Origin: Corynebacterium amycolatum
Lineage (GTDB): Bacteria > Actinomycetota > Actinomycetes > Mycobacteriales > Mycobacteriaceae
DNA length: 64,000 nt
Direction: 5' to 3'
Assembly (NCBI RefSeq): GCF_016889425.1
Contig: NZ_CP069513.1
Coordinates: 2,294,001 to 2,358,000 of the forward strand
In this document: positions 8,730-43,792 of the stretch, one piece after another
How the letters are laid out: every line of letters starts with the position of its first letter
Position numbering within the stretch: position 1 is the first letter of the stretch
The notes under the pieces: generated by a model
What the model was told of the DNA's origin: nothing
Seen by the model: the letters and a program-made list of their open reading frames with translations, nothing else
Database searches by the model: none
Position numbers and translations under genes: made by a program

Positions 8730-8820
8730 CAATGCGAGTTACTGACTGCGTTTATGACAAAATGACCTGAAAAATGGCATGAAAATGTCATAAACTCGCA
8801 CAGTTTCACATTTGCAGCCG
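8730..8820 (+). repeat. Intergenic palindromic repeat element, copy 1
   Basis: Member of a five-copy family in this window. It begins CAATGCGAGTTACTGACTGC. The left arm is 8733-8759 and the right arm TGTCATAAACTCGCA 8786-8800. The inner stem TTTATGACA/TGTCATAAA is perfect, and the outer TGCGAGTT pairs with AACTCGCA once a block of the left arm is bulged out. A tail reading CAGTTTCACATTTGCAGCC follows. It lies between convergent genes (odhA and the lipoprotein), about 105 bases from a terminator. It has no coding content. Confidence 0.85.
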
Positions 8821-8905
8821 GCATTCAAGGGCGAATAGACAAACACAGCAGCAGCCAACAGCGGATACGCGTCAGATACCGCCGCAACTAGCCCCGCCGC
8901 CCCGG

Positions 8906-9667
8906 CTACGCCTTATCCAGCCACTCCTGAGCGACCAACTCAGGGCTGGCGCCACCAGCCACAGCCCGGGTCATCAGCTTTAAGTCCTCAGTGCTCAGCG
9001 AACCAGCAATCTCATTGAGCACTCGGACTCGATCGCTCCGGTCCAACGCTGGCTTGACGTAGAAAGGCACAAGCCATTGCGGCAAGTCAGCCCCAGCATT
9101 GTCAGCTGGCACATCCGTGCACCCCTGCGCCATGCCCGCGTCGGTGGCCATAACTTCACCCGGCAACGACCGCGAAAATGCGTCGTAAACACGGTCTCGC
9201 CACTCGCCGCTGAATTGCTTGTGCGGGGTGGAGTCGTCGGCGTACTCCTCAGCCAGCGAAGCCGCGGACGCGGAATCGCTCAGGCCGAGCAGCTCACCTG
9301 TGCATCCGAAAGAGACCAGGACTGCTTCATTGCGTACGGCCCGCAACCGGTCATCAGCATCGCGAATGCCGATGACCTCCGCTTGCCGCCCTATCCTCTC
9401 AAAGCTTTGCGCATACAGGTACGCAAGAGCTGCCTGCTCGGGGTTGCGTAGGTCTGCCCCGACAGTCACTACCGCCTCCTGTTCGGGAGGAACGGGCATC
9501 TGCGGATCTAAATCAGAACATGCGGCAAGACCGAACCCCGCTGCCCCAGCGACCAATGCCAGGGCGGTAAAAGTGCACGCAGTAGCCTTGGAGCTCCCCT
9601 TGCACCCCATTGAGCGGATGCGAAAGTGGAACCCGGCGTTCGCACGTCTAAAATTAATCATCGACAC
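8906..9667 (-). CDS. Lipoprotein, OpuAC/glycine-betaine-binding-like fold, function unknown
   Basis: A lipoprotein signal peptide ends in LAAC, with the acylated cysteine at about residue 50 of the 253-residue frame. Mature residues such as VVTVGADLRNPEQAALAYLYAQ resemble the start of osmoprotectant-type substrate-binding proteins (OpuAC/OsmF family), and the C-terminus VAQEWLDKA also fits. The mature part (about 200 residues) is shorter than a usual binding protein, and no permease or ATPase gene is adjacent. The start is uncertain: GTG 9667, ATG 9661, or ATG 9610, which would give a more normal signal-peptide length. C. glutamicum has a secreted protein gene in the same place beside odhA. 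Divergent from corA. Confidence 0.8.
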   Translation of the reverse strand: MSMINFRRANAGFHFRIRSMGCKGSSKATACTFTALALVAGAAGFGLAACSDLDPQMPVPPEQEAVVTVGADLRNPEQAALAYLYAQSFERIGRQAEVIGIRDADDRLRAVRNEAVLVSFGCTGELLGLSDSASAASLAEEYADDSTPHKQFSGEWRDRVYDAFSRSLPGEVMATDAGMAQGCTDVPADNAGADLPQWLVPFYVKPALDRSDRVRVLNEIAGSLSTEDLKLMTRAVAGGASPELVAQEWLDKA

Positions 9668-9704
9668 CAGCGTAACCTACGAACGGATTGTGAGGTCACC
9701 CAGA

Positions 9705-10928
9705 ATGGGCGATGAGAAAAGCCGCAACAACAGCGCTTCGTCAAAGGCTCGCAATCCGCGAACTAACTCGGTCAGTAAAAGCCAAACGCCGTCGGCCACA
9801 GCAAAACCCGGCAAAACTGCTCGGGCAACGAATGCAGCTAAATCCGCAGCAATGTCAGCTGTCTCGAAGGTGACGCGCACCAACGGATCGTCGTCAAGCG
9901 TGGGAGAAACGCAGTCGGAGGCGGTGCGCGATGCCCTGCGCGATTGCGGCGTCTACATCGGCGGCAAGCGTTTGCCGGGCACCTACGACCACTTCTCCGG
10001 TCTGTCCGAGGTGCGTAATTTTGGCGAGGGCTTCACGTGGCTGTCATTGTCGCGCCCCAACGCGACACAGATGGACGCCATCGCTGAGCTTTACGGGCTG
10101 GATGAGCTGACGGTGGAGGATGCACTGACTAACCGCCAGCGCCCCAAGATTGAAATCCACGATGATCACGTGGTTTTTGTGATTCGCTCGATTCACTACT
10201 CCCCGGAAGGTCTCGCGGACGACGAAAATGAGATCATTCGTTCTGGCCAGCTGATGATTGTTATCGGCCAGGAGTACGTCATCACCATTCGCATGGGCAT
10301 GCCGAGCTCGGATATGCAGCGCATTAGCGCGCGTGTGGAAAACACCACCGACGCCATCGACTACGGTCCCGCGGGCGTGCTGTGGGCGCTGACGGACAAC
10401 CTCGTCGATGCGTACCTGCGCATTGCGTTGCAGCTGGAAGATCGCGTGGAGATTATGGAAGATGCCGTCTTCGAGCCGAATTTGGTGTCGGATATTGAGG
10501 ACATTTACATCCTCAAACGAGAAATCCTGGAGATGCGCCACGCAATCGATCCGCTGACGCCGGCGCTGCGCTCCCTGATGAATCTGCGAGAAGACATCAT
10601 GCCGAAGGACGTCAGCCGTTATCTTTCCGATGTTCTCGACCACCAGCTCGCCGCGGCGGACCTCGTAGCCGGACTCGACGAACGCCTCTCCTCCCTCATC
10701 GACGCCGCCGCAGTGAAGATCCAGCTGCAGCAGAACCAGGACATGCGTACTATCTCGGCATACGCGGCTATTCTCGCCGTGCCAACCGCCCTGGCCGGTA
10801 TCTACGGCATGAACTTCGACCGCATGCCCGAACTGCACTGGGAGTACGGGTACTTCATCGTCCTCGCCATCATGTTCGCCATTGTGGCGTTTTTGGTGTG
10901 GCTCCTGCGCCGCAACAAGTGGCTGTAG
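9705..10928 (+). CDS. corA: CorA-family magnesium/cobalt transporter
   Basis: Pentameric Mg2+ channel of the CorA-MRS2-ALR1 superfamily. The 407-residue product has a disordered Ser/Lys/Thr-rich N-terminus of about 65 residues, a cytoplasmic alpha/beta and long-helix domain, and two C-terminal membrane segments. The diagnostic GMN motif (YGMNF) closes the first of these, and the protein ends with basic RRNKWL. The frame is open far upstream, over the antisense of the lipoprotein gene, but ATG 9705 is preceded at nine bases by GAGG (9692-9695), so I take that start. The basic N-terminal extension is longer than in E. coli CorA, which is about 316 residues. Confidence 0.95.
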   Translation: MGDEKSRNNSASSKARNPRTNSVSKSQTPSATAKPGKTARATNAAKSAAMSAVSKVTRTNGSSSSVGETQSEAVRDALRDCGVYIGGKRLPGTYDHFSGLSEVRNFGEGFTWLSLSRPNATQMDAIAELYGLDELTVEDALTNRQRPKIEIHDDHVVFVIRSIHYSPEGLADDENEIIRSGQLMIVIGQEYVITIRMGMPSSDMQRISARVENTTDAIDYGPAGVLWALTDNLVDAYLRIALQLEDRVEIMEDAVFEPNLVSDIEDIYILKREILEMRHAIDPLTPALRSLMNLREDIMPKDVSRYLSDVLDHQLAAADLVAGLDERLSSLIDAAAVKIQLQQNQDMRTISAYAAILAVPTALAGIYGMNFDRMPELHWEYGYFIVLAIMFAIVAFLVWLLRRNKWL

Positions 10929-10971
10929 TTTCCGCTTCTGGCAGGCAACGCTTTACGACGAGTACAACAAC

Positions 10972-11517
10972 CTACCCGCGGTTCCCACCGAGAGCCCGCT
11001 GCGCCAACAGGTCGCGAGCACGCTCGGCATTGCGGGGATTGCACAAAACATCGTAGCGACGAGCAACAATCTCCGTGGTGGTGGAGAAATCCCGCTTGCC
11101 GTTTTGCATGGCGTATGGGACTGCCGCCAGCACGATGCCAAAGATGGCGCCCATCCCGAGGCCAACAATCAACGGGCTAACCCAATCTTCCTGGAAAAGC
11201 CCCAGAATCAGGCCGAAGAACAGGCCCATCCATAGGCCGTACAGCGCGCCACCACCGAGCACTTTCGGCCAGGTCAACCGACCTACCACGCGCTCCACCT
11301 GCATCAGGTCAACGCCGACGATGGTGAGGTCGGAAACCGGGAACTCATCGCGATCACTGAGCGAATCAACCGCAGCCTGGGCATCGGCGTAGTTGGTGAA
11401 GCTACCCACCGGCCACCCCTCGGGCACCTGCCGCTGAGGCAACCGGGACTTCATGCTCTGTTCCCGGCCGCTCCCCCAACCGCTGTTCGCTTCCCCATTT
11501 GCCATCGGTACTTTCAC
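10972..11517 (-). CDS. Membrane protein with general-stress-protein (GSP17M/YflT-like) domain
   Basis: 181 residues. Residues about 35-75 (GSFTNYADAQAAVDSLSDRDEFPVSDLTIVG) match the pattern of the YflT/GSP17M N-terminal domain seen in small actinobacterial stress or membrane proteins. Two hydrophobic helices follow (about 85-107 and 115-135), then a polar C-terminus (TEIVARRYDVLCNP). The biochemical role is unknown. Start is GTG 11517 or ATG 11505; AGGGA lies close to the former. It converges with corA, with a 43-base gap. Confidence 0.8.
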   Translation of the reverse strand: MKVPMANGEANSGWGSGREQSMKSRLPQRQVPEGWPVGSFTNYADAQAAVDSLSDRDEFPVSDLTIVGVDLMQVERVVGRLTWPKVLGGGALYGLWMGLFFGLILGLFQEDWVSPLIVGLGMGAIFGIVLAAVPYAMQNGKRDFSTTTEIVARRYDVLCNPRNAERARDLLAQRALGGNRG

Positions 11518-11736
11518 CGTTCCCTTGCAGTTGTTGTCACAGCAATTGGTGACTCAGTTGCTGAAAATATTGCTAAAACTATCGCTAAAAAGCGTTCTAT
11601 CAAGGACAACGCCTGACAGTTTCCAATTGTTCCACCGTCTGGCCCACCACCCATTCCACCGCCACCGCGCTTGTCGGAAGGGTTGGGCGCTGTGACCGTC
11701 GTAAAGCGGAAAACTGCTGATTTTGTCAGTAGTTCT

Positions 11737-11774
11737 TTGTCTTACGGGGTCTCACGATAAGATTCACTACATAA
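11737..11774 (+). promoter_or_regulatory. Possible leaderless promoter of mrp
   Basis: TTGTCT (11737-11742) and TAAGAT (11758-11763) are 15 bases apart. The expected start of transcription falls at or next to the A of the mrp ATG (11774). The mrp start lacks a ribosome site, which agrees with a leaderless transcript, a common arrangement in corynebacteria. Confidence 0.35.
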
Positions 11775-12907
11775 TGTCTACGATTACTGAAGCTGAAGTT
11801 CGCACCGCCCTGGCGCAGGTCGAAGATCCTGAGGTACGTCGCCCGATTACCGAGATTGGCATGGTCAAGTCCATCTCGGTGGCGGACAACAACGACGTGG
11901 CCGTGGAGATTTACCTCACCATCGCCGGTTGCCCCATGAAAAACACCATCATCGAGCGCACCGAAGATGCGCTCAACGGTATCGAGGGCGTTGGCAACGT
12001 CACCGTCACCACCGATGTGATGAATGACGAGCAGCGCCGCGAGTTCCGCAACGCCGTCCGCGGCACCGCCTCCGAGCCGGTGATCCCATTCGCCCAGCCG
12101 GACTCCCGCACCCGCGTGTTCGCCGTCGCCTCCGGTAAGGGTGGCGTTGGTAAGTCCTCTGTGACCGTGAACCTCGCTGCCGCGCTGGCTGCGAAGGGTC
12201 TATCTGTCGGTGTGCTCGATGCCGATGTCTACGGCCACTCCATCCCGCACATGATGGGCTCCGAGGAAAAGCCGCACCAGGTCGACGACATGATTATGCC
12301 TCCGCAGGCACACGACGTGTCGCTGATTTCTATCGGACACTTCGTCGACGACAACGCACCGGTTGTCTGGCGTGGGCCAATGCTGCACCGCGCTATCCAG
12401 CAGTTCCTCGCGGACGTGTTCTGGGGCGACTTGGACGTCCTGCTTTTCGACCTGCCCCCGGGAACCGGCGACATCGCCATCTCCGTGGCGCAGCTCGTGC
12501 CGAACGCTGAGCTAGTGATTGTTACTACCCCGCAGATGGCCGCCGCCGAAGTTGCCGAGCGTGCCGGCACCATCTCGCTGCAGACCCGCCAGCGGATCGC
12601 CGGTGTCATTGAGAACATGAGCTGGATGGAAATGCCCGACGGCTCCAAGATGGAAGTCTTCGGCACAGGCGGCGGCGAGACCGTTGCCCGTCGTCTTACC
12701 CAGATCACCGGAGGAAAGGTCGAGCTGCTCGGCCAGGTGCCACTGGACACCGAACTCCGCGAGGGTGGCGACAAGGGCACCCCGATTGTCCTATCCAAGC
12801 CGGATTCGGGCGCGGGCGAGGCCCTGAACGCTATCGCCGACAAGCTGGTTGTTCGTCGCGAGTCGCTCGCAGGCAAGTCGCTAGGCTTGGGCGTGACGCC
12901 GAAGTAG
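11774..12907 (+). CDS. mrp: Mrp/ApbC-type iron-sulfur cluster carrier P-loop ATPase
   Basis: Cytosolic scaffold or carrier for Fe-S clusters, 377 residues. An N-terminal MIP18/DUF59-like domain (about 5-95, with AGCPMKN) is followed by a MinD-type ATPase domain with deviant Walker A GKGGVGKSS at 121-129 and DLPPGTGD in the Walker B region. The CxxC motif present in E. coli Mrp after 'IENMS' is replaced here by WMEMPDG; the M. tuberculosis homologue also lacks it. I chose ATG 11774 because homologues begin MSxxTEAxVR and the upstream part looks non-coding. A terminator follows. Confidence 0.93.
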   Translation: MSTITEAEVRTALAQVEDPEVRRPITEIGMVKSISVADNNDVAVEIYLTIAGCPMKNTIIERTEDALNGIEGVGNVTVTTDVMNDEQRREFRNAVRGTASEPVIPFAQPDSRTRVFAVASGKGGVGKSSVTVNLAAALAAKGLSVGVLDADVYGHSIPHMMGSEEKPHQVDDMIMPPQAHDVSLISIGHFVDDNAPVVWRGPMLHRAIQQFLADVFWGDLDVLLFDLPPGTGDIAISVAQLVPNAELVIVTTPQMAAAEVAERAGTISLQTRQRIAGVIENMSWMEMPDGSKMEVFGTGGGETVARRLTQITGGKVELLGQVPLDTELREGGDKGTPIVLSKPDSGAGEALNAIADKLVVRRESLAGKSLGLGVTPK

Positions 12908-12935
12908 TCCTTCGCTTTACGACGATCATAGCGAC

Positions 12936-12976
12936 GCCCCCTCCCCGGTATTTTCAGTGCCGGGAAGGGGGCCTTT
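12936..12976 (+). terminator. Intrinsic terminator of mrp
   Basis: GC-rich hairpin: left arm GCCCCCTCCCCGG (12936-12948), loop, right arm 12960-12972 ending GGGGGC with one mismatch, followed by TTT. Confidence 0.75.
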
Positions 12977-13090
12977 GCTCATTGTGGCTGCAGTGTCTGG
13001 GGCGTATGTGGTTTGGGGGTTTTCGGCGGTGTAAGTGTTGTCGGTGGTCCGGGGTTTGCGGGCGGTGTATCCACCGACGCGGCTGCGTGC

Positions 13091-13163
13091 ACTTACTGAC
13101 TAGGTTTATGACAGTTTCGTGGCAAAATTTGTGCTCAAAGTGTCATAACCCTGGTCAGTAACT
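13091..13163. repeat. Intergenic palindromic repeat element, copy 2 (symmetric form)
   Basis: Divergent but nearly symmetric member of the family. The left arm ACTTACTGACTAGGTTTATG + ACA (13091-13113) is mirrored by the right arm (13141-13163), whose reverse complement reads AGTTACTGACCAGGGTTATG + ACA; 20 of 23 positions pair. Both arms keep the ACTGAC block that only the left arm has in the other copies. It lies between convergent mrp and tatB. Confidence 0.8.
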
Positions 13164-13188
13164 TGCGGTCGGGAACGGTTTGCCACCT

Positions 13189-13773
13189 CTATAGGTTGTC
13201 GTCGTCGACCCAGGCCTGCACCCCACGGGGCTGCTGTGGTGTTTGCTGTGCCTGCTGTTGGCGGGCCTGGGCAACTGGATCCTGCCACGTTCCTGGCTGC
13301 TGAGCCGACTGCGGGACCGGCTGCTGCGACGGAGCCGGTTGCACTGGCTGGCTCTTGTTGGATTGCTGGTACTGCTGGCCTGCGGCACCAGTTGCTCCAG
13401 CCGCACCAGCTACTCCAGAGGATCCACCGGCTCCTGCAGCTCCGGTTGCACCAGTTCCGCCGCCACCCGCTGCGGGCTTACCGGAGAGCATGTCCAGGTA
13501 GGTGTCATCGCCGTCGAAAAGCGTCCTGGTGATGGCGGTCTTCGGGTTGAGACGACGGAGATCGTTGAGCTCCTGCAGCGGCTTGCGAAGATCGTCGAAG
13601 TCTTCACCGAACTCATCCGAGAGGTTATCGCGTGCGTCATTGATTGCGGTGCGCGCAGCCAGAAGCAATGCGCGGATGTCCTCAATTACCTTCGGCAACC
13701 GCTCAGGTCCGATGAGAATTAGTCCGAGGATAAAGAGGACGAGAATCTCGCCCCAGCCAACATTAGAAAACAC
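13189..13773 (-). CDS. tatB: Sec-independent protein translocase subunit TatB
   Basis: The TatB component of the twin-arginine export receptor. The 194-residue protein starts with a short periplasmic N-terminus and a membrane helix (about 7-22, [20 protein letters not shown]). The E/G-P hinge is followed by the amphipathic helix that defines the TatA/B family. The rest is a low-complexity tail, first Gly/Ala-rich and then Gln/Pro-rich ([14 protein letters not shown]), typical of actinobacterial TatB. It sits below sigE, cseE and the HtrA protease on the same strand, as in C. glutamicum, which links export with envelope-stress control. Confidence 0.95.
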
Positions 13774-13885
13774 GTTATACCACCTTAGTTACAGTGCACC
13801 TCGCATGCAGCATTGCGCGGCCAAATCCGCCAAATCCGCAGAAACCAGCCAACCCCAGGCAAGTCCAAGCAAAACCAGCGCCACC

Positions 13886-15205
13886 CTACTCCGGCGTGAT
13901 CTTCGCCTCCAGCTCGGCTCCGTGGCGAACGATCTTCAATACCGCCTCATTACCAGCGCCAACAGTCCACAGTGCCACCGTGAGCTCATCTGCGGACGAT
14001 ACCGCGCGGTCCCCCACAGCCGTAATCACGTCGCCTTCCTGCAGGCCTTCCCGATCAGCGACACCTCCCGGCAGGATGCTGGCAATCTCGGCACCAGTCA
14101 GTGCGCCATTGGAAACCGTGCGCGCTGTCACGCCGATCCCCGGATGAACCGGCTTCTCACCGGCAATGAGCTGCTCAGCGATGGCAACGGCTGAATTGAT
14201 CGGGATCGCAAAGCCCAACCCCTGTGAGCCACCCGAGCTACTGAAAATCACTGTATTAATACCAATAATGGCACCGCGGATATCCACCAGTGGACCACCC
14301 GAGTTACCCGGGTTGATGGAGGCATCGGTCTGAATCGCATCGGCGTAGCCATCCGTATCAGTCCCCTCAGCAGCCAGGCGCACCGGCCGATTAAGCGCCG
14401 AGACAATGCCCGAAGTCACCGTTCCGCCCAGCCCCTGCGGCGACCCCATCGCAATCACCGTGTCACCGACCGCAACCGCATTGGAATCACCAAGCTGCGC
14501 CACGGTCAGCCCCGCAACGTCTTCGACCTTAATTACGGCGAGGTCGGTCTTCGGGTCGCGGCCAATGATCTTGGCCGGCACCTCTTTCAGCTTGCCACCG
14601 TCCCAAAACGTTACCGAGACCTGCATATCCTGCCGGTCCGCCACTGCCGAAACGACATGGTTATTCGTCAAAATATGACCGTCACCATCAATGACAAACC
14701 CCGAGCCCACGCCCGAAACCTCACCGGCACTGACCGCAATCGACACCACCGCGGGACGAAGAGTCTCCGCCACCTTGCCGATTTCGGTCAAATCGCCGTT
14801 GCCCGGTCGCCCCTCGACCTGTTGCAACTCCACACGCTGGTAGTCCGAGCGGAAAGTCTTACCAGCCCAACCGCCGACAAAGCCACCAACACCGCCAATC
14901 AGCAGCACCACGGCCGACGACGCCGCAATCACACGCCACGGCACCTCACGGCCAAAAATCACTTCCCGCGCGCTGACGCGGGGGGCCATCTTCGGGCGAG
15001 GTTTCTTCTTCGCTTCGGGTTTGCGGGCTGGACGCCCCGTCGTCATGCGTGACGACGAATCCTGCCACGGCGAATACTCTCTAGTAGTGGCGCTGGTGTC
15101 GTCGTCAAGCTTATGCCCTGGCGCACGCTGTAACCCGCCAGTTGCGGCGGCACGATCGGCGTCCGGGGCAAACGCGGAATCATCGAAATCGCGATGTTTG
15201 CCCAC
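13886..15205 (-). CDS. htrA: HtrA/DegP-type membrane-anchored serine protease with PDZ domain
   Basis: Envelope quality-control protease, 439 residues. The cytoplasmic N-terminus (about 90 residues, basic and Pro-rich before the membrane) is followed by one membrane segment (about 91-112). The trypsin-like domain has the catalytic triad H183 (TNNHVV), D221 (KTDLAVIKV) and S302 (NPGNSGGPL), and a PDZ domain lies at about 355-437. The architecture equals mycobacterial HtrA/PepD. Its start overlaps the cseE stop by one base, so translation is probably coupled. Likely part of the SigE regulon by its position behind sigE and its anti-sigma factor. Confidence 0.95.
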   Translation of the reverse strand: MGKHRDFDDSAFAPDADRAAATGGLQRAPGHKLDDDTSATTREYSPWQDSSSRMTTGRPARKPEAKKKPRPKMAPRVSAREVIFGREVPWRVIAASSAVVLLIGGVGGFVGGWAGKTFRSDYQRVELQQVEGRPGNGDLTEIGKVAETLRPAVVSIAVSAGEVSGVGSGFVIDGDGHILTNNHVVSAVADRQDMQVSVTFWDGGKLKEVPAKIIGRDPKTDLAVIKVEDVAGLTVAQLGDSNAVAVGDTVIAMGSPQGLGGTVTSGIVSALNRPVRLAAEGTDTDGYADAIQTDASINPGNSGGPLVDIRGAIIGINTVIFSSSGGSQGLGFAIPINSAVAIAEQLIAGEKPVHPGIGVTARTVSNGALTGAEIASILPGGVADREGLQEGDVITAVGDRAVSSADELTVALWTVGAGNEAVLKIVRHGAELEAKITPE

Positions 15206-15597
15206 TAGTGACTACCACCTTTACGAAAACCGCGAACGATCTGCTCCAACGCAGCGCTCAGCGACTCCGGCGGACGGTGCGCGAGATGCCGCGCCGACCT
15301 ATGGGGCTCTGAGTCCTCGCAGCTGCCTGCGAAATCAGCAATACGAGCGCGCAGCTCAGCTGGAATGTGCAAGGCCGCGCTATCACGCAGACGCTTGGCT
15401 GCCTGCCGCTGCTTCGCGACCTCCCGGCGACATTCCGGGCATGCCATCAGGTGCGCCTGCGCACGTCGCTCAGCTACGACCGACAACTCGCCGTCAACAA
15501 AAGCGGCAATTGCCTCGGTGCCGAGATGCTCCGTTGACAAAAAACGCTTGTCATCGCCCTGCTGAATCACAGACTGCAGCACCTCCAGAAATCGCAC
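15205..15597 (-). CDS. cseE: Anti-sigma factor CseE (zinc-associated, RseA-like)
   Basis: Inhibitor of SigE. The 130-residue protein carries the ZAS motif HxxxCxxC as H49-LMA-C53-PE-C56 in an all-helical anti-sigma domain. No membrane segment is visible, so it should be a cytoplasmic anti-sigma factor like mycobacterial RseA. It lies 50 bases downstream of sigE and overlaps htrA. Named by position and motif after C. glutamicum cseE. The first dozen residues are less certain than the rest. Confidence 0.92.
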   Translation of the reverse strand: MRFLEVLQSVIQQGDDKRFLSTEHLGTEAIAAFVDGELSVVAERRAQAHLMACPECRREVAKQRQAAKRLRDSAALHIPAELRARIADFAGSCEDSEPHRSARHLAHRPPESLSAALEQIVRGFRKGGSH

Positions 15598-15647
15598 CTA
15601 TTAACTAGCCCCACAATAGCCGCTCCCACGGATTGAGTGCGGGAAAA

Positions 15648-16301
15648 CTAGCCTGCGGTGACCGACTCCGGCAGCTCCTGCCGCTGCCTCTCCAGACGCT
15701 CCAACGTCGCCCGCAAGCTGGAACGTGCCCGGTGAATGCGCGAACGCACGGTGCCCATCTTGAGCCCAAGGGTGTTAGCAATTTCCTCGTAGGTCAGCCC
15801 CACCACATCACAGAGGACAACCACCGCGCGATAGTCCGGCTGCAGCTCAGCCAGCGCGATTTCCAAATCCGGATCGAGCATCGCGTCATCGACGGCCTGC
15901 TCCGGCGTCTTCAGCGTGCCCGGGACGCGGTCGTAGTTCTCCGGCAACGCCTCCATCCGGATCACCTGCCGATGCCGGACCATATCCAAAAACAGGTTAG
16001 TTGTAATCCGATGCAGCCAGCCTTCAAAAGTGCCGGGACGGTATGACTTCAGCGAGCGGAACACACGCATGAATGTCTCCTGCGTCAGGTCTTCCGCGTC
16101 CTGTTGGTTACCAGTCAACCGATATGCGAGCCCGTAAACACTATCCGCGTGGGCTTGGACAAGTTCCGACCACGACGGCATCTCTCCCACACCTGCGTCA
16201 AAAGCTGCGGTGCCGGACAGTTGCTCAGTTGCGTCAGCGGACGGGGCGTCCTCGCGGCTGGCGCCTGCGCTGACTCGTTCGGACTTGACTCGTTCGGGCA
16301 T
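15648..16301 (-). CDS. sigE: ECF sigma factor SigE
   Basis: Extracytoplasmic-function sigma factor for envelope stress, 217 residues. An N-terminal extension of about 43 residues is followed by region 2 (about 45-112; [25 protein letters not shown], with [19 protein letters not shown] for -10 recognition) and region 4 (about 148-202; [25 protein letters not shown]) for -35 binding. It shares its strand and order with cseE, htrA and tatB. The upstream gap contains GGAAC on the minus strand (16312-16316), but it is too close to the start codon to be a normal SigE -35. Confidence 0.96.
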
Positions 16302-16459: not shown

Positions 16460-17134
16460 GTGTCCGAAACGAGTTCTTCTGCTACCCCGCTATCCGCACG
16501 TGACGCTATTGCACAGCACGTCAACAACACGACCGTAGTCTCCGAGGCCCTTGAAAGCGCCCGAGAGAGCGCTAGCGAATACGGAGTTGCCGTCCCCGAT
16601 ACGATGACCGGCGCCGCTTTGACCTCGCTCATGGCCCTGACCAGTGCCCGCCGCGACGGCCACCCCGCCGCTGTCATCGCATCGCCTGCAGCAGGCGTAG
16701 TCGGTTTGCACCTGGCCGCCGGTCTCGGCGATGACGGCGTTCTCACCTGCATCGACCCTGAGCTCGAGCACCAGTCTCTGGCAAAGTCCGCTTTCCGAGC
16801 CGCAGGCATCCGCCCCAACCGACAGCGCTTCCTGCCCTCGCAGCCACTGGAGGTCATGGATCGCCTGGCAGCCGACTCCTACGACTTGGTCTACTTGGAC
16901 GTCGCCCCGGCAATCCTCCGCGCCGCCCAGGAAAAGGCCTGGCCGCTGCTTCGCTCCGGTGGCGCGCTCGTCCTGACCGGCGCGCTCCTCGACGGCACTG
17001 TTGCTGACTCGTCACGCACTGACCGTGACACCGTCGCTGCCCGCGAAGCCGACGAATACATGCTCCAGCTTGACGACGCTTACGTGATGCGGCTCCCCTT
17101 AGCAGCCGGAACCACTGTGCTGGTGAAGAAGTAG
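16460..17134 (+). CDS. Class I SAM-dependent O-methyltransferase-like protein
   Basis: 224 residues from a GTG start, matching in length and position the methyltransferase gene that is divergent from sigE in mycobacteria (Rv1220c) and corynebacteria. The Rossmann pattern is visible: AVIASPAAGVVGLHLAAGL (motif I), GVLTCIDPE (acidic loop after beta2), YDLVYLDVAP (motif around the metal-binding Asp of the catechol-O-methyltransferase family), and LRSGGALVLTGAL. Motif I lacks the usual E-x-G-x-G-x-G and reads SPAAGVVG, so SAM binding is likely but not proven. Substrate unknown. Confidence 0.85.
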   Translation: MSETSSSATPLSARDAIAQHVNNTTVVSEALESARESASEYGVAVPDTMTGAALTSLMALTSARRDGHPAAVIASPAAGVVGLHLAAGLGDDGVLTCIDPELEHQSLAKSAFRAAGIRPNRQRFLPSQPLEVMDRLAADSYDLVYLDVAPAILRAAQEKAWPLLRSGGALVLTGALLDGTVADSSRTDRDTVAAREADEYMLQLDDAYVMRLPLAAGTTVLVKK

Positions 17135-17154
17135 TTTTCTACTGTTGGCCGGCT

Positions 17155-17310
17155 GGCTGGCGGCCTCCCGCCAATGCGAGTTACTGACTGCGTTTATGGC
17201 TGGCGGCCTCGGGCCAATGCGAGTTACTGGCCGCGTTTATGTCAGAAATGAACCAAAAAAGTGGCCTGAAAGTGTCATAAACTCGCACAGTTTCACTTTT
17301 GCAGCCCGTA
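17155..17310 (+). repeat. Intergenic palindromic repeat element, copy 3 (with duplicated 43-bp module)
   Basis: Long form of the element. The head module CAATGCGAGTTACTGACTGC… occurs at 17172-17198 and again at 17215-17241, exactly 43 bases apart, with the intervening GGCTGGCGGCCTC also present before the first module. The right arm TGTCATAAACTCGCA is at 17273-17287, followed by CAGTTTCACTTTTGCAGCCC. It lies between the convergent methyltransferase gene and glgC, just before the glgC terminator. Confidence 0.85.
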
Positions 17311-17418: not shown

Positions 17419-17445
17419 CTTGCAGCCTGAGCCGGCTTTGACAGG

Positions 17446-23543: not shown

Positions 23544-23638
23544 CAATGCGAGTTACTGACTGCGTTTATGACAAAAATGGTCCGAAAGACGGCTTCAAAG
23601 TGTCATAAACTCGCACAGTTTCACATGTGCAGCCCGTA
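23544..23638 (+). repeat. Intergenic palindromic repeat element, copy 4
   Basis: Left arm 23547-23573 beginning TGCGAGTTACTGACTGCG, right arm TGTCATAAACTCGCA 23601-23615, tail CAGTTTCACATGTGCAGCCC. This is the only copy not between convergent genes: it lies between the rlmA-like gene and DUF3117, both on the minus strand, but is again about 50 bases from a terminator. Confidence 0.85.
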
Positions 23639-23679
23639 CTTTTTGTTTATAAACCCGCATTCGAGCCGTTATCACCTGA

Positions 23680-35882: not shown

Positions 35883-35890
35883 GGACTTTC

Positions 35891-38056: not shown

Positions 38057-38118
38057 CTGGCCGAGTCAGTTACCCCGAGACTGGTTTTCCAGGTCGCCCA
38101 GTCCCCTAGTAACCCGAA

Positions 38119-40032
38119 TTACTTCTTATTCATTGCCTTCGCGCGGGAACGGGCGCGAGCGCGATCGGTGGCGCTGAGGATCTGCTTGCGTACGCGAATG
38201 CCCTCCGGGGTGACCTCAACACACTCGTCAGCGCCACAGAACTCCATAGCCTCATCGAGGGAGAGCTTGTGAGCCTTCTCCAGGGTCACGGTCGCATCAG
38301 CCGAGGCTGCGCGCATATTCGTCAGCTTCTTTTCCTTGGTGATGTTGATGTCCATGTCCTCATCACGCGGATTCTGGCCAACGACCATGCCCTCATAGGC
38401 CTGGTCACCCGGCTCGACGAAGAAAGTACCGCGGTCAGAAAGCTGGATCAGCGCGTAAGCGGTGATCTGGCCGGTACGGTCAGCCACCAGCGAACCAGTC
38501 GGGCGATCCTTAATCTCGCCTGCCCACTCGCCATAACCTGCCGAGTAGTGGTTGGCGATACCGGTGCCCTTGGTCTCCGTCATGAAAGTGGTGCGGAAGC
38601 CAATCAGACCGCGGGACGGAATGAGAAACTCCATGCGCACCCAACCGGTGCCCTGGTTACCCATCTGTTCCATGCGTCCCTTACGAGCCGCCATCAGCTG
38701 GGTGACCGCACCCAGGTGCTCTTCTGGAACATCGATGGTCAAGTGCTCGTACGGCTCTTCAACCTTGCCATCGACGGTCTTGGTCACAACCTGCGGCTTA
38801 CCGACGGTCAGCTCAAAGCCTTCACGGCGCATGGTTTCAACCAGGACGGACAGCGCCATTTCACCACGGCCCTGCACCTCCCAGGCATCCGGGCGTTCGG
38901 TCGGCAGCACGCGCAGCGAGACGTTACCGATCAGCTCCTGGTCCAGGCGGGCCTTGACCATACGAGCGGTCAGCTTATCGCCACCACCCTGGCCTGCCAG
39001 TGGCGAGGTGTTCACACCGATCGTCATGGAGATAGCCGGCTCATCGACCAGAATGCGTGGCAGCGGATCCGGGTGCTCAGCATCACAGAGAGAGTCACCG
39101 ATCATGACCTCATCGATACCGGAGATAGCAGCGATGTCACCTGCAATGGCCTCTTCAGCAGGAACACGGGTCACACCGACGGTACGCAACAGCTCCGCGA
39201 CCTTCGCGTTCTTGATGTGCTCATTGCCATCAGAGTCATAGTGAATCCACGAAATCTGCTGTCCCTTGCGGATACGGCCCTTGTGAATACGAATCAGGCC
39301 AATTCGACCAAGGAAGGAGCTGGAGTCCAGGTTAGTAACCTGCGCCTGCAGCGGGGCATCAATCTCAGCGGACGGCTCCGGGAGCACCTCGGTGATGACG
39401 TCGAACAGCGGCTGCAGGTTCTCAGACTCCGGCAAGTTGCCGTTACCCGGGTTCTCCGTCGAAGCCTTACCGGCACGACCGGAAGCATAGAGAACCGGCA
39501 GCTCAAGGTTGCGCTCTGCGACCTCAGCAGCTTCCGGGTCTTCCAGGGTAGAGGCTAGCTCTAGCAGCAGATCCTGGGCTTCCTCAACAACCTCGTCGAT
39601 ACGCGCATCTGGACGGTCGGTCTTGTTGACCACAATGATGACTGGCATGGACGCAGCCAGGGCCTTGCCCAGCACGAAGCGAGTCTGTGGCAACGGACCT
39701 TCGGAAGAGTCAATCAGCAGCACGACGCCGTCAACCATGGACAGCGCTCGCTCCACCTCACCACCGAAGTCGGCGTGGCCAGGGGTGTCAATGACGTTGA
39801 TGATGAGATCTTCGCCGTTCTTGCCCTCACCTTTTCGGCGAATAGCGGTGTTCTTCGCCAAGATGGTGATGCCCTTTTCCTTTTCAAGGTCACCAGAGTC
39901 CATCACTCGGTCTGCAACTTCTTCGTGGTCGCTGAAAACGCCGGACTGCTCCAGCATGGCGTTCACGAGAGTGGTCTTGCCATGGTCGACGTGCGCGACA
40001 ATGGCGACATTACGGAACTCGGTATCGCTCAC
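38119..40032 (-). CDS. typA: Ribosome-associated GTPase TypA/BipA
   Basis: Translational GTPase of the EF-G/LepA group, 637 residues. G1 is AHVDHGKTT (13-21), G3 DTPGHADFGGE, G4 NKTD; these are followed by beta-barrel domain II, two alpha/beta domains and the C-terminal BipA-specific domain (VEPGDQAYEGMVVGQNPRDEDMDINITKEKK). GTG start. It aids 50S assembly and growth under stress in other bacteria. It leads the typA-lpqW-mshB set on the minus strand. Confidence 0.96.
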   Translation of the reverse strand: MSDTEFRNVAIVAHVDHGKTTLVNAMLEQSGVFSDHEEVADRVMDSGDLEKEKGITILAKNTAIRRKGEGKNGEDLIINVIDTPGHADFGGEVERALSMVDGVVLLIDSSEGPLPQTRFVLGKALAASMPVIIVVNKTDRPDARIDEVVEEAQDLLLELASTLEDPEAAEVAERNLELPVLYASGRAGKASTENPGNGNLPESENLQPLFDVITEVLPEPSAEIDAPLQAQVTNLDSSSFLGRIGLIRIHKGRIRKGQQISWIHYDSDGNEHIKNAKVAELLRTVGVTRVPAEEAIAGDIAAISGIDEVMIGDSLCDAEHPDPLPRILVDEPAISMTIGVNTSPLAGQGGGDKLTARMVKARLDQELIGNVSLRVLPTERPDAWEVQGRGEMALSVLVETMRREGFELTVGKPQVVTKTVDGKVEEPYEHLTIDVPEEHLGAVTQLMAARKGRMEQMGNQGTGWVRMEFLIPSRGLIGFRTTFMTETKGTGIANHYSAGYGEWAGEIKDRPTGSLVADRTGQITAYALIQLSDRGTFFVEPGDQAYEGMVVGQNPRDEDMDINITKEKKLTNMRAASADATVTLEKAHKLSLDEAMEFCGADECVEVTPEGIRVRKQILSATDRARARSRAKAMNKK

Positions 40033-40667
40033 AGGCGGATAGCTCCTAACAAGCTAAGAGGACTAAAAGAAAAAGATACGGCCTTGCCCTAAAGGACTGT
40101 CTTTGCGACTGTCTTTAACGCCCCGCATCAACGCGTAATAAAGCGTTCTACAGTGTACTCCTTCTTAATGGCCCTGCACATCTGGCAGAGCTTCTCGCAA
40201 CCCCGAGCACCTATCCGTCATGCAAAGTGGCATTGCCGCGCCGCCCCTAGGCATAAATTACCCCCTTGCTGCACCCCCGCTTTACCGACAGCCATAACGG
40301 CATATCCACCCACACCACAACGCTTCACGACGGCAATCTCTCAGCCCACCATGTGATAGATGTGACCAAATGCCATAGTTGTAACCCCACGGGATGAGAC
40401 TTGACTCCACCTGCTTACACGCTGCGAAACGCCATTAACCCCATAAGCATGCAGTGTGCCTCAATTGTCACAATCATCTCTTTCTACACCTTCATCCACT
40501 CTGATTGACTTGCGACACGCGGGAACCCGTGCGTTAATCTCCTGAGAAGATTCTGAACATTTCTTTTTCAAATCTTTCCAATTCACGTTGGAGTCGTTCT
40601 AAGATGAGCAACGATTCCGAAATTTTGATTCCGACTCCAATAGCCCACGAATGAGAGGTACTTCACC
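40033..40667. other. 635-base divergent intergenic region, no gene found
   Basis: Between typA (minus) and the secreted protein gene (plus). I see no convincing reading frame, RNA gene or palindromic element. The last about 150 bases are AT-richer and probably hold the promoter and a long leader of the downstream gene, whose ribosome site GAGAGG is at about 40653-40658. Confidence 0.6.
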
Positions 40668-41360
40668 GTGGTTTCGACTGGACGCTCCTTCCTTCGCCGT
40701 GCCGCAGCGACCTTGGGTGCAGCTGCAATTCTCACTGCGGGCATGACTCCCGCCGCTTCTGCTTCCCCCTCGCTGGACTCCCTGAACATCGCTTCGCCGG
40801 ATCTTTACGGCAACGCGCGCGACATCATTAACTCCCCAGGCGTTCCTGAGGAAATTTCAAGCGCGCTGAACAAGGGAATTGACTTCCTGACTGGTGAGGG
40901 CGACGGCGAGCCGGGCTTCAAGGTTCCGGAAGGCGCCCCGAAGACCAACCAGTTCCTGCTGCCGACCGTGGCTGACAAGTGCATCGGTGGCGAAAGCCGC
41001 TCCATCGGTATGGCCACCTCCGTTCCGGGTCCGGCTGACCTGCCGCTGCCTGGCGTTCCGGAGAACCAGCTTGGCTTCGTCTTCACTGGCCTGGGCACCA
41101 AGCAGCTGGCTAAGGAACAGAACACCGAGATGAACGTCTACTGGGTCAACGTTGCCAACGGCAAGTACGGCAAGACCACCCTGCAGAACAACGGTATTAA
41201 CGCCGAGGAGGGCCCGGGCGCTGTCAACGGCACCGCTGACACGGGCAAGGGCTTGGTCATCGCTGTCATGCAGGGCGGTATCACCACTCAGGAAGAGCCT
41301 GGTCCGACCAACTGCAGCTACACCCCGACCGCCGGTGTCTTCCCGGTCGGCCTGAACTAA
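40668..41360 (+). CDS. Secreted protein of unknown function
   Basis: 230 residues from a GTG start with GAGAGG ten bases upstream. A signal peptide (SFLRRAAATLGAAAILTAGM…ASA, cleavage after about residue 32) directs export; the Arg pair is not a full Tat motif. The mature protein has just two cysteines (C105 and C216), which may form a disulfide. It shows beta-rich, Gly/Pro-rich sequence such as VPGPADLPLPGVPENQLGFVFTGLGT. Secreted proteins of this kind occur near typA in related genera, but I cannot name a function. Codon use (CTG, GGC, AAC) suggests strong expression. Followed by a good terminator. Confidence 0.85.
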   Translation: MVSTGRSFLRRAAATLGAAAILTAGMTPAASASPSLDSLNIASPDLYGNARDIINSPGVPEEISSALNKGIDFLTGEGDGEPGFKVPEGAPKTNQFLLPTVADKCIGGESRSIGMATSVPGPADLPLPGVPENQLGFVFTGLGTKQLAKEQNTEMNVYWVNVANGKYGKTTLQNNGINAEEGPGAVNGTADTGKGLVIAVMQGGITTQEEPGPTNCSYTPTAGVFPVGLN

Positions 41361-41379
41361 GTTTTTCTAGTTCTCCCCT

Positions 41380-41416
41380 AGCCCTTTTTGCATCACGTAT
41401 GCAGAAAGGGCTTTTC
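41380..41416 (+). terminator. Intrinsic terminator of the secreted protein gene
   Basis: Stem AGCCCTTTTTGCAT (41380-41393), loop CACGT, complement 41399-41412 with one G-T pair, then TTTT. Confidence 0.87.
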
Positions 41417-41456
41417 TATGCCCAAAAAGGCAGCACCCACACGTTAAGGTATTCGC

Positions 41457-42101
41457 ATGTCCACTTCACCGGCCACTTCGGCTTCGACCGCGGCAGCTCC
41501 TGCACTCTCCCCGATTCACTCGAGTCAGGACACACATCCTCCAAAAGTCGAGACCTTTGACCTACGTGAAATGGTCAACACCGACCCCAAGGGCTTTCAG
41601 CGCAAAGTCGACGAGTTCCGAGCTCTCACGCCCAGCCGCCTCTATATGCGCCGTGGGATGGATCATCCAAAGTTTGGATATCTTGAGTCATTCCTGCTTG
41701 CCGACGAGGGGTTGCGCATCAGCATTTATCACTTCCGCCCGGGCGTGAAGGTGGAACACCAACGCTACGTCGATATTGTCAGCATCGACCGGACTGATCC
41801 GCAGTGCTGGCGTATGACCGATTTGTATCTCGACATCCTGCAGGCACCGACCGCCCCTGAGGCCATAGCTCCCCTACCTGTCGATGCGGCCACACAGATT
41901 CGAGTTGAAGATGTCGACGAGCTCGTCGCGGCCCACACTCAGGGACTGATTAGCGATGAACTCACCGAGTTCGCTATCGAGACCACGCTGACTGCACGCG
42001 CCGCAATCGCTGCACACGGTGACAACATTGATGCGTGGATGCAGACTTTGAACCTCGAAGCGACGTGGGCTGACGCTGTTGAGCTTTCGCCTGCAGCCTA
42101 G
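41457..42101 (+). CDS. DUF402-domain protein
   Basis: 214 residues. After a Ser/Ala/Thr-rich N-terminus of about 30 residues, the sequence PSRLYMRRGMDHPKFGYLESFLLADEGLRISIYHF and WRMTDLYLDILQ has the look of the DUF402 fold (FomD/Ntdp-like nucleotide or phosphoester hydrolases). VDELVAAHTQGLISDELTEFAIETT in the C-terminal helical part is typical of the family. Metal ligands of known family enzymes cannot be assigned by eye, so activity is not claimed. It is followed after 30 bases by the SUFU-type gene on the same strand. Confidence 0.8.
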   Translation: MSTSPATSASTAAAPALSPIHSSQDTHPPKVETFDLREMVNTDPKGFQRKVDEFRALTPSRLYMRRGMDHPKFGYLESFLLADEGLRISIYHFRPGVKVEHQRYVDIVSIDRTDPQCWRMTDLYLDILQAPTAPEAIAPLPVDAATQIRVEDVDELVAAHTQGLISDELTEFAIETTLTARAAIAAHGDNIDAWMQTLNLEATWADAVELSPAA

Positions 42102-42131
42102 AACTACCACCTCAACAAAGGAGTACCGTTC

Positions 42132-42743
42132 GTGTTCGATAACTTAACCGGCCCCATCCCTCCCGCCGGCCCTGATGGCAATGCGATTATCAAAGCCGTC
42201 CGAGCAGCATTTACCTCCTACTTTGAAGAGTCCAACCCCGGCGAAGCCCAGCTGACCTTCCTCGGCTCTGCTCCGCTGAAGATGCTGCGCTTCGGACCTG
42301 ACACAGGCCGGATTGTCACCTACGCAACACTCGGTTGCAGTGCCGAGGCAATGCAAGATCCGTCCGCAATGGTGGTGGACACCAACTCTGGCCCGCGTGC
42401 CGAGCTCATCTTGCCTATTCGTGGTGGTCTGGACGAAGTCATCCGCCCGCTGGGTATTCTTGCCGCTTCCCCAAGCATCGAAGGCCTCATCCTCACCGAG
42501 GGTGCACTTATCGACTTCGGCCAGCCACTGTGGGATCAATCGCGCTTCACCGGTTTTGTGCTGCTCAAGGCAGAAATCCCGCCGGTCGTGGTAGAGGAAA
42601 CCGAAGTCACGATCTTCCAGCCAGTCCCGGCCACAACCAACGAATTTGCCCTTGCTCGCGCTAAGGGCGTTGACGAACTGCGTCGCGTGTGGGAAACCCA
42701 AGGTGTCGACTTCACCGACCCGTACCGCACCAGCGCTGTATAA
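42132..42743 (+). CDS. Suppressor-of-fused (SUFU) domain protein
   Basis: 203 residues from GTG with a strong AAGGAG site. The blocks IVTYATLGCSAEAM, GPRAELILPIRGG, EVIRPLGILAASPSIEGLILTEGALIDFGQPLW and FTGFVLLK match the bacterial SUFU-like family (PF05076 type). Animal members regulate Hedgehog signalling, but bacterial members have no established role and are often found near toxin/immunity or metabolic genes. Here it forms a probable two-gene operon with the DUF402 protein. Confidence 0.82.
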   Translation: MFDNLTGPIPPAGPDGNAIIKAVRAAFTSYFEESNPGEAQLTFLGSAPLKMLRFGPDTGRIVTYATLGCSAEAMQDPSAMVVDTNSGPRAELILPIRGGLDEVIRPLGILAASPSIEGLILTEGALIDFGQPLWDQSRFTGFVLLKAEIPPVVVEETEVTIFQPVPATTNEFALARAKGVDELRRVWETQGVDFTDPYRTSAV

Positions 42744-42850
42744 AAGTTAGCTTTTTCGACGGTTGCCGATTATCTGCTCGTCGGCAAGCGATAAGTGCAA
42801 CCTAGCAGTGACGTTTCGCGCCGAGACAGCGTGGTTTAGAGTGTGGAGTT

Positions 42851-43348
42851 ATGGTAGTCAATTCGGCTAAAGACGTTCCTTACCATGCGGCGCAGTCCTT
42901 TAGGTGGTGGCGGCTGGCGGTATATTCTTACGTCCCGGCGCTACTCCTCACCGTGGTCAGTTCCCTATTGAAATGGGATGCGACTGTTACGGAAGCGGCA
43001 AAGGCCAACAACATCGAGATTTCTGCTGCTCAGACCAGCTTGGCTGTGAGCTTCGCGTTTGCAATTATCGCGCAGACGGCAACGGCGATTGCGTGCTGGT
43101 GGCTTGCTGGCAAACTCCTTGAAGGATCGACTGCAGCGCGCACGGTGCTGTCCGTGGCAGCGGCAGTTTTTGTCATTAATGCATCAATGACTCTGGTCGG
43201 AACGATTTCCCAGTTGCGCTCCGGAGACTCATCGGTGCTCGGTTTGATTACAGCTGGCCTGCTGATTGTTGCCTCTATCATCGCCGCAACTGCAACCGTC
43301 CAGTCCTACCGTGGCGAGCGAAACCAGAAGTTCTTTGTGACGACGTAG
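42851..43348 (+). CDS. Small four-helix membrane protein
   Basis: 165 residues with hydrophobic segments at about 22-40, 65-85, 95-118 and 127-145, and short polar ends. GTGGAG is close to the ATG. No family recognised. It is downstream of the SUFU gene with a 107-base gap, so possibly separate. Confidence 0.75.
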   Translation: MVVNSAKDVPYHAAQSFRWWRLAVYSYVPALLLTVVSSLLKWDATVTEAAKANNIEISAAQTSLAVSFAFAIIAQTATAIACWWLAGKLLEGSTAARTVLSVAAAVFVINASMTLVGTISQLRSGDSSVLGLITAGLLIVASIIAATATVQSYRGERNQKFFVTT

Positions 43349-43656
43349 GCAGCTCTTAGTGACTCGGCGGCTTCGCGGATGAGAGCAGCGCTGTTGGCAA
43401 CCACAACCCAGCTTTCGCCCCTGACCTCCAACCCACTCTTGACCGGGGAGTAGAGGCAATCGTTGTAGCTACCTGTGCTTGGTTGGCGAAATGAGGGTGT
43501 GATTAGCGAGGCTGATGCGTGCGGCTGCTGGCGAGCTGGTGGATGGTGTGGTGCCGGACTCGTGCGGGACGGCCGAAAACCTGGGGTTAAGAGACAAACC
43601 TAACCCCGGCCACACGCCGACCGGACATGCTTCTTGCTACTTATCCCAAAAACTTA
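43349..43656. other. Intergenic stretch, no gene found
   Basis: About 300 bases after the small membrane protein gene, before repeat copy 5. No reading frame with ribosome site and no clear terminator for the upstream gene are visible. Confidence 0.5.
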
Positions 43657-43792
43657 CGGGCTGCAAATGTGAAACTGTGCGAGTTTATGACATTTTGAAG
43701 CCGTTTTTCGGGCCATTTTTGTCATAGACGCAGTCAGTAACTCGCATTGGCTCGCGGTCGCCAAACATAAACGCAGTCAGTAACTCGCATTG
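43657..43792 (-). repeat. Intergenic palindromic repeat element, copy 5 (inverted, with duplicated 43-bp module)
   Basis: Read on the minus strand it has the long form of copy 3: head modules at 43792-43766 and 43749-43723 (43 bases apart), then the rest of the left arm, and the other arm at 43692-43678 (TGTCATAAACTCGCA on the minus strand), then the CAGTTTCACATTTGCAGCCC tail. It lies between the convergent membrane protein and acyl-CoA dehydrogenase genes, 41 bases from the latter's terminator. Confidence 0.85.

What the first reader, a model, noticed from the sequence alone, without database searches (positions are those of the whole stretch)
8730..43792. Five-copy family of intergenic palindromic elements
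Copies at 8730-8820, 13091-13163, 17155-17310, 23544-23638 and 43657-43792 share a head (CAATGCGAGTTACTGACTGC), an inner inverted repeat (TTTATGACA/TGTCATAAA), and, except copy 2, a tail (CAGTTTCACATTTGCAGCC). They code for nothing. A density of one per about 11 kb in this stretch and defined ends argue for a REP/MITE-like family. I know no named corynebacterial repeat with this sequence.
Basis: seen in the sequence. Interest (0 to 1): 0.75.

Follow-up and report, generated by a model that had tools for sequence, protein, structure and literature searches.

The report
Corynebacterial intergenic palindromes hosting insertion sequences
Short hairpin-forming DNA repeats lie between genes in one group of corynebacteria; some appear to have been spread by a jumping gene, a second jumping gene lands in their middle, and some keep their two halves matched as they evolve, which hints at a function that nobody has tested.

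Summary
The five copies are real and part of a genome-wide family: 28 near-full copies of the main type in this 2.47-Mb genome, found in 6 of 242 genus genomes. Copies 1, 3, 4, 5 are type A: an asymmetric hairpin core with extra head and tail modules. Three fuller type A units end in 31-60 bp matching the ends of a 1.4-kb IS1249-family (IS256 superfamily) insertion sequence; one site is empty in a relative and shows an imperfect 8-bp duplication. Type A is best read as a non-autonomous IS1249-type MITE with palindromic cargo; head and tail are not its true ends. Copy 2 is type B: a ~77-bp near-symmetric palindrome, loop usually 27 nt, mostly between convergent genes in two of three species, with arms that change together. 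An IS30-family element lands in the loop: all 33 IS ends found in five genomes lie 9-10 or 20-21 nt from an arm. No RAYT-type transposase domain in 5 genomes. Function of type B is inferred, not shown.

The parts
8662..8676 (+). copy 1 (type A): IS1249-type end motif, left
   Evidence: GGGTTAATAGACAGA
8731..8819 (+). copy 1 (type A): head 8731-8756, stem 8751-8759 / 8786-8794 around a 26-nt loop, tail 8800-8819
   Evidence: between the convergent genes ending at 8488 (+, 2-oxoglutarate dehydrogenase domains) and 8906 (-)
13089..13165 (.). copy 2 (type B): near-symmetric palindrome, arms 13089-13113 and 13141-13165, 27-nt loop
   Evidence: convergent genes ending at 12907 (+, Mrp-type P-loop ATPase domains) and 13189 (-)
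17173..17310 (+). copy 3 (type A): two head units 43 nt apart (17173-17198, 17216-17241), stem 17236-17244 / 17273-17281 around a 28-nt loop, tail 17287-17306
   Evidence: convergent genes ending at 17134 (+) and 17446 (-)
23545..23638 (+). copy 4 (type A): head 23545-23570, stem 23565-23573 / 23601-23609 around a 27-nt loop, tail 23615-23634
   Evidence: classed as tandem gap
23642..23656 (-). copy 4: degenerate IS1249-type end motif, right
   Evidence: GGGTTTATAAACAAA, 2 substitutions
43584..43598 (+). copy 5: IS1249-type end motif
   Evidence: GGGTTAAGAGACAAA
43655..43791 (-). copy 5 (type A): tail 43659-43678, stem 43684-43692 / 43720-43728 around a 27-nt loop, head units 43723-43748 and 43766-43791
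   Evidence: convergent genes ending at 43348 (+) and 43878 (-)
43793..43807 (+). second IS1249-type end motif, directly beside the outer head unit of copy 5
   Evidence: exact GGGTTAATAGACAAA
52139..52159 (-). possible half-unit remnant, in the fifth convergent gap of at least 100 bp of the window
   Evidence: 21 nt, 90% to the head unit of copy 5; not tested further, may be chance

Best explanation
The family is a hairpin-forming palindrome in two states. (1) Type B, the near-symmetric form: about 77 bp, arms AGWWASTG-N5-GTTTATGRCA, loop usually 27 nt, mostly shared by position between species, mostly at the facing 3' ends of convergent genes in two of the three species classed. (2) Type A, the dispersed form of the window: an asymmetric relative of that palindrome carried as cargo in a non-autonomous IS1249-family (IS256 superfamily) MITE of about 240-295 bp, moved in trans by an IS1249-type transposase through GGGTTAA... 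ends with 8-bp target duplication, then decaying at its ends. In both states the loop is where an IS30-family insertion sequence lands, mostly with a 3-bp duplication. Shown: copy numbers, IS1249-type ends on three type A units, one empty site, intact IS1249-type elements with 8-bp duplications, the fixed IS30 insertion point, arm covariation. Inferred: that an IS1249-type transposase moved type A in trans; that the IS30 transposase recognises the palindrome itself; and that type B arms stay matched because the hairpin acts at transcript 3' ends (bidirectional barrier or stabiliser). I give the last step about one in three; the stated confidence is for the rest.
For: 28 near-full type A copies in G000 and 28 in G082. 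Type A units L083, L070 and L017 match both ends of IS1249-type elements over 31-60 bp at 77-88%, E down to 5e-11. The site of L083 (G082) and L070 (G235) is empty in G000, with flanks GCTCTCTA and GGTCTCTA or GGTTTCTA. The 437-aa product of the 1,406-bp element is an IS1249-family transposase, 515.7 bits against a cut-off of 300; G082 has 21 matches, G000 5 with one full length and open, G194 none, and G194 has only one weak half-match to type A. Exact 8-bp duplications flank 8 of 12 IS copies checked. All 33 IS30-type ends in five genomes lie 9, 10, 20 or 21 nt from a palindrome arm; 5 of 6 complete G082 copies have a 3-4-bp direct repeat. Arm covariation: 70 cells changed on both sides against 38.9 in shuffles, score 0.220 against 0.118, 0 of 500 shuffles as high for either. 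Orthologous loci differ in both arms together.
Against: Only one clean empty site; of the other three sites with a clear or partial gap, L012 may be a deletion between short ACCC repeats, and L104 and L008 are not clean. The duplication at the clean site is 7 of 8 or 6 of 8 identical, not exact. Most type A loci lack a recognisable end motif, and 26 of 28 G000 type A loci share flanks with element-bearing G082 loci, so movement is rare or old. Two of the five covariation measures are weak (57 of 500 and 49 of 500 shuffles as high), and the structure was named from the same sequences. In G194 only 4 of 11 classed type B loci are convergent. Three of 12 IS1249-type copies lack a duplication and one of six IS30 copies has none.
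Confidence: 0.72

Rival explanations
1. Type B palindromes are old neutral repeats whose arms are kept alike by template-switch (quasi-palindrome) correction during replication, with no selected function.
For: Paired changes arise in one step under this mechanism and need no selection (recalled). Single-arm mismatches persist, as in L160 and L165. G194 shows no convergent bias: 4 of 11.
Against: Convergent placement 11 of 13 in G000 and 11 of 13 in G082 against 11 of 64 gaps.
Confidence: 0.4
2. Type B is a bidirectional 3'-end element (transcription barrier or mRNA stabiliser) shared by convergent genes, under selection for pairing.
For: Convergent placement in two species; in 5 of the 11 convergent G000 type B loci both called stops lie within about 75 nt; folds of -33.5 to -50.6 kcal/mol, z -6.8 to -12.1, for four copies tested; both-arm changes at orthologous loci.
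Against: Weak T-tracts: mean 5.5 T in 14 nt against 2.8 background, part of it the arm's own TTTC. The copy-2 locus also has a separate terminator-like hairpin for the + gene, by eye. No expression data. G194 not biased.
Confidence: 0.35
3. A REP/REPIN system: hairpins mobilised as single strands by a REP-associated tyrosine transposase.
For: Inverted arms around a spacer, intergenic, many copies, as REPINs are described (abstract of PMC3116915).
Against: No Y1_Tnp match in 5 of 5 genomes searched, while the control found it in 5 of 14 named genomes. No GTAG or CGTC foot in the consensus.
Confidence: 0.04
4. Type B arms are half-sites of a DNA-binding protein, and the elements are a dispersed operator or chromosome-organising site.
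For: Conserved AGWWASTG and GTTTATGRCA at near-fixed spacing; TTTATGGCA in most G194 arms against TTTATGACA in most G000 and G082 type B arms.
Against: The middle of the arm is free in sequence yet covaries between arms, which independent half-sites would not need; placement mostly at gene 3' ends in two species.
Confidence: 0.12

Closest known systems
MITEs derived from IS256-superfamily (IS1249-type) insertion sequences
   Same: Short, non-coding, terminal repeats like those of a full IS in the same genomes, 8-bp target duplication at one site.
   Different: Carries a palindromic core with repeated head and tail modules related to a separate, positionally stable palindrome; most copies have lost recognisable ends.
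REP / REPIN elements
   Same: Intergenic inverted arms around a spacer, dispersed, targets of an IS.
   Different: No RAYT domain found, no GTAG or CGTC foot; arms are 20-24 nt and the loop is near-constant in length.
Palindromic hot spots of IS30-family elements, and REPs targeted by ISs
   Same: IS30 prefers nearly palindromic hot spots (passages of PMC9333248); REPs are targets of several IS families (passages of PMC1525189).
   Different: Here an IS30-family element is found only in one dispersed palindrome family, at one point of the loop; the passages of PMC1525189 name IS3, IS110, IS4, IS256 and IS5, not IS30, as REP-targeting families; duplication 3 bp rather than 2.
BOX-type modular repeats (recalled)
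   Same: Variable numbers of modules around a core.
   Different: No sequence relation tested; here modules sit inside IS1249-type ends.

Membership tests
MITE of the IS1249 type (type A) | Terminal repeats matching those of an autonomous IS | tested here: met
   L083, L070 and L017 match both IS ends over 31-60 bp at 77-88%; only three units compared
MITE of the IS1249 type (type A) | Target-site duplication and empty site | tested here: met
   one site: empty in G000, 8-bp repeats identical at 7 or 6 of 8 positions in G235 and G082
MITE of the IS1249 type (type A) | Transposase source in the same genome | tested here: met
   G000 has one full-length open match, G082 many
MITE of the IS1249 type (type A) | Transposition in trans by that transposase | not testable with these tools
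   needs an assay
MITE of the IS1249 type (type B) | IS1249-type ends, duplication or empty site | not tested
   no autonomous element with type B ends was seen among arm pairs listed, but those lists are capped; empty type B sites were not sought in G194
REP / REPIN | GTAG (or CGTC) foot | tested here: not met
   consensus of 36 type B sequences ends AGAAAG...CTTTCT; definition from passages of PMC3733652
REP / REPIN | RAYT (Y1_Tnp) in the genome | tested here: not met
   0 of 5 genomes
IS30-family hot spot | Palindromic site, fixed insertion point, short duplication | tested here: met
   33 of 33 IS ends at 9-10 or 20-21 nt from an arm; 3-4-bp repeat in 5 of 6 copies
Known structured RNA family | Reaches an Rfam gathering score | tested here: not met
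   one Rfam hit in the window, a TPP riboswitch elsewhere
Intrinsic terminator (type B) | Stable hairpin followed by a U-tract | tested here: inconclusive
   hairpins strong, T-tract weak on average over 86 strand-sides

The most novel reading that the evidence does not exclude
Type B palindromes are a base-pairing-constrained, bidirectional 3'-end element of convergent gene pairs in corynebacteria that mobile DNA has recruited twice: as cargo of an IS1249-type MITE and as a dedicated safe landing pad of an IS30-family element. A second set of species (G087, G125, G136, G202) carries a palindrome family of similar design with a different stem.
Probability: 0.25. Interest if true: 0.7.

Novelty: new variant of a known kind. 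Interest (0 to 1): 0.5.

Why it matters
It gives corynebacteria a counterpart of REP-type repeats without a detected RAYT, with named partners: a likely mobiliser (IS1249 type) and a site-specific guest (IS30 type). Orthologous palindromes that change both arms together between close species are a natural test of whether such hairpins are selected or only corrected by template switching. Several draft contigs of these species begin or end inside the palindromes because of the IS30 guest, which matters for assembly.

Tried and rejected
Plasmid or phage carriage: types A and B against plasmids gave only short matches at E 2 or more; an exact 16-mer of the type B arm in viral contigs gave 0; an IS30 end against plasmids gave 0. 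The phage record collection was not searched. RAYT hypothesis: not supported. The ~1.44-kb split copies in G082 first looked like the autonomous parent of the palindrome; rejected because the insert is an IS30-family element found in both orientations with its own ends. Single hits of the arm pattern in G010 and G014 lack a partner arm and were set aside as chance. Literature: searches for Corynebacterium with MITE, REP, repeat or IS terms (listings only) showed no title or abstract start about this family; most subscription papers are not in that library. Rows left out: L011 and L018 failed the pairing filter and are not in its context counts; loci at an edge (1 in G000, 4 in G082, 1 in G194) are outside the k of n; the G000 palindrome at 473154 is not in the 13. 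In one search type was set by a loose tail match, so two B-like copies each in G000 (463410, 563344) and G082 (152232, 246584) were counted as A. The context baseline uses the window and six stretches picked as orthologous insertion sites, so it is not a random sample. The first module list for the window used a best-match flag and missed places; one search corrects it. One search counted 32 IS ends because two ends share the same 30-nt flank; one search counts 33.
Full report
WHAT IS THERE. The five copies exist as described. The window is bases 2294001-2358000 of a single-contig Corynebacterium genome of 2,474,943 bases, G000. Named relatives with the exact 23-mer of the head are C. amycolatum SK46 and an isolate labelled C. 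vitaeruminis 1285_CVIT. G005 is probably SK46 (contig length 436,012 in both) and G235 probably the second isolate (1,589 identical bases). A 96-base copy finds 59 places in G000 at E<=10, 28 of them near full length, and 54 in G082, 28 near full length (40 of 55 candidates scored). In the genus 6 of 242 genomes match at E<=0.001, G000 included; in G194 the match is a 39-base half. No Rfam family matches.

TWO SUB-TYPES. Type A (copies 1, 3, 4, 5) has a core stem TTTATGACA/TGTCATAAA, poorly matched outer arms (CTGCG against CTCGC) and the conserved tail CAGTTTCACATTTGCAGCC; several copies have extra head units 43 nt upstream or extra tail-like units. Type B (copy 2) is a near-symmetric palindrome with arms AGWWASTG-N5-GTTTATGRCA. 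Among 43 distinct type B sequences fetched (14 G000, 14 G082, 12 G194, 1 G005, 2 G235) the loop is 27 nt in 36 and 26 or 28 nt in 7 (which allowed 26-28; one search allowed 24-31).

TYPE A LOOKS LIKE AN IS1249-TYPE MITE. A motif GGGTTAATAGACAAA recurs outside type A cores. In G082 a similar end bounds a 1,406-bp insertion sequence beside a type A core (L085:61-1466), flanked by TATGTTCC on both sides. Its 437-aa product is an IS1249-family transposase (NF033544, 515.7 bits). Matches to it: G082 21, G235 8, G000 5 (one full length and open), G005 2, G194 0. Of 12 IS1249-type copies checked, 8 have exact 8-bp duplications, 1 has 7 of 8, and 3 have none, two of the latter (L259, L267) with exchanged flanks. 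Type A units L083 (242 bp), L070 (241 bp) and L017 (295 bp) match both IS ends over 31-60 bp at 77-88%. L083 (G082) and L070 (G235) occupy one site that is empty in G000: left flank GCTCTCTA, right flank GGTTTCTA or GGTCTCTA, and GCTCTCTA once in the empty site. With a strict motif match within 350 bases, 8 of 28 G000 and 11 of 30 G082 type A loci still show at least one such end, 1 in each genome both. Of 28 near-full G000 loci, 26 share flanks with an element-bearing G082 locus (not L008, L012); of 28 near-full G082 loci, 4 (L083, L084, L092, L104) have no counterpart among the G000 loci held. At L012 the G082 gap lies between short ACCC repeats and may be a deletion; L104 and L008 are not clean; L084 and L092 aligned on one side only. 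Movement is therefore rare or old.

IS30 LANDING PAD. Several G082 copies are split by a ~1,432-bp IS30-family element (NF033563, 233.9 bits), in both orientations. Its ends occur at 33 places in five genomes. In all 33 a palindrome arm, in one case (L214) with a substitution, ends 9, 10, 20 or 21 nt away: 7, 12, 2 and 12 cases. This is one insertion point seen from both sides, in types A and B alike. Exact direct repeats of 3, 4, 3, 3 and 3 bp flank five of six complete G082 copies; the sixth has none. The strict arm motif occurs 8 times in the 64-kb window, both strands together. G000 has one such end, beside a type A half. Passages of PMC9333248 say that IS30 prefers nearly palindromic hot spots and makes 2-bp duplications; passages of PMC1525189 name IS3, IS110, IS4, IS256 and IS5 as REP-targeting families.

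TYPE B KEEPS ITS ARMS MATCHED. On 36 gapless type B sequences (those with 27-nt loops), 85.8% of cells pair (shuffle mean 80.1, 0 of 500 as high), 70 cells change on both sides (mean 38.9, 0 of 500) and the covariation score is 0.220 (mean 0.118, 0 of 500); slid partners score 0.027-0.063. Two measures are weaker: pairs with a change on both sides (57 of 500 as high) and further pair types (49 of 500). The structure was named from these sequences, which favours it over slid versions, and relatedness inflates the shuffle test. Orthologous loci are more direct. The copy-2 locus lies between a gene with Mrp-type ATPase domains and a gene I take for TatB by eye (no Pfam match); it reads TGACTAGGTTTATGACA in both arms in G082, the same with two changes in one arm in G000, and TGCCAGCGTTTATGGCA in both arms in G194. 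L030 (G000) has ACCCC where L181 (G082) has ACTAG, both arms. L166 (G000) has TTTATGGCA where L236 (G082), 96% identical over 4.1 kb, has TTTATGTCA, both arms. Single-arm mismatches also exist (L160, L165). Folds of four type B copies give -33.5 to -50.6 kcal/mol, z -6.8 to -12.1; type A copy 4 gives -20.6, z -2.1, with 5 of 200 shuffles as low.

CONTEXT. With a codon-usage gene finder trained on the window, type B lies between convergent genes in 11 of 13 (G000), 11 of 13 (G082) and 4 of 11 (G194); type A in 14 of 27 (G000) and 16 of 26 (G082). Baseline in the window plus six G000 stretches of 20 kb: 11 of 64 gaps of at least 80 bp are convergent. Fisher p is 6e-6 for G000 type B and 0.0016 for G000 type A. 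The finder is crude, the baseline is not a random sample and includes element-bearing gaps, and G194 does not follow. In the window four of the five convergent gaps of at least 100 bp hold one of the five copies.

HOW IT MOST LIKELY WORKS. Type A spread as an IS1249-type MITE with a palindrome related to type B inside; copies at gene ends are tolerated; the IS30-family element exploits the palindromes as harmless sites. For type B I weigh neutral palindromes kept alike by template switching (0.4) against a bidirectional 3'-end role (0.35). The second gains from near-constant loop length, placement in two species and 5 of 11 convergent G000 loci with both stops within ~75 nt; it loses from weak T-tracts, the G194 placement and the lack of any expression data.

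WIDER FAMILY. A covariance model of type B has matches at E<=0.01 in 9 of 242 genomes (at most 19 candidates scored per genome): strong in G000, G005, G082, G194, G223 and G235, weaker in G128 (three places, best E 1.5e-6), G136 (three, best 0.0012) and G087 (one, 0.0077). G136 and G087 carry a palindrome with arm AAAASTGCGGGGGTATATGG, further units about 30 nt outside the core and, in two of the four loci viewed (L277, L286), an IS1249-like end. That unit is in 4 of 242 genomes (G087, G125, G136, G202), 34-56 matches each, 0 for the reversed control in those four. The likeness of design is judged by eye; common descent is not shown.

NOVELTY. My paper searches found no description of this family (listings only, open-licence papers only). 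MITEs, REP-like palindromes and palindrome-targeting ISs are known kinds; the combination, and the arm covariation at orthologous sites, is a new variant as far as these searches go.

Noticed in passing
L001-L028 against L061-L106, four bases after ATAAAC in the type A tail: In 24 orthologous type A pairs the bases read TCGC in 16 of 24 G000 copies but 2 of 24 G082 copies (there mostly TCAC or TCAT), a species-wide shift at copies that stayed in place. Unexplained.
   Followed up: partly
G087, G125, G136, G202 (L276, L277, L282, L286, L288-L307): A second multi-copy palindrome family, arm AAAASTGCGGGGGTATATGG, 34-56 matches per genome, with extra units ~30 nt outside the core.
   Followed up: partly
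L275, L281 (G128): Palindromes GCTTTGGGTTTATGGCG...CGCCATAAACCCAAAGC that share the inner GGTTTATGGC motif with type B.
   Followed up: no
L176 (G082) and L163 (G000): Two type B palindromes about 1.4 kb apart flank one conserved gene of about 347 aa in both genomes.
   Followed up: no
L259 and L267 (G082): Two IS1249-type copies have exchanged 8-bp flanks (CTCTTGGC / GTGCTAGA), as if recombination joined two insertions.
   Followed up: no
L171, L125 (G000 409752-411900): A broken IS1249-type copy lies near a one-ended IS30 remnant inside a type A core.
   Followed up: no
window 61736-61857 (-): TPP riboswitch (RF00059, 55.5 bits).
   Followed up: no
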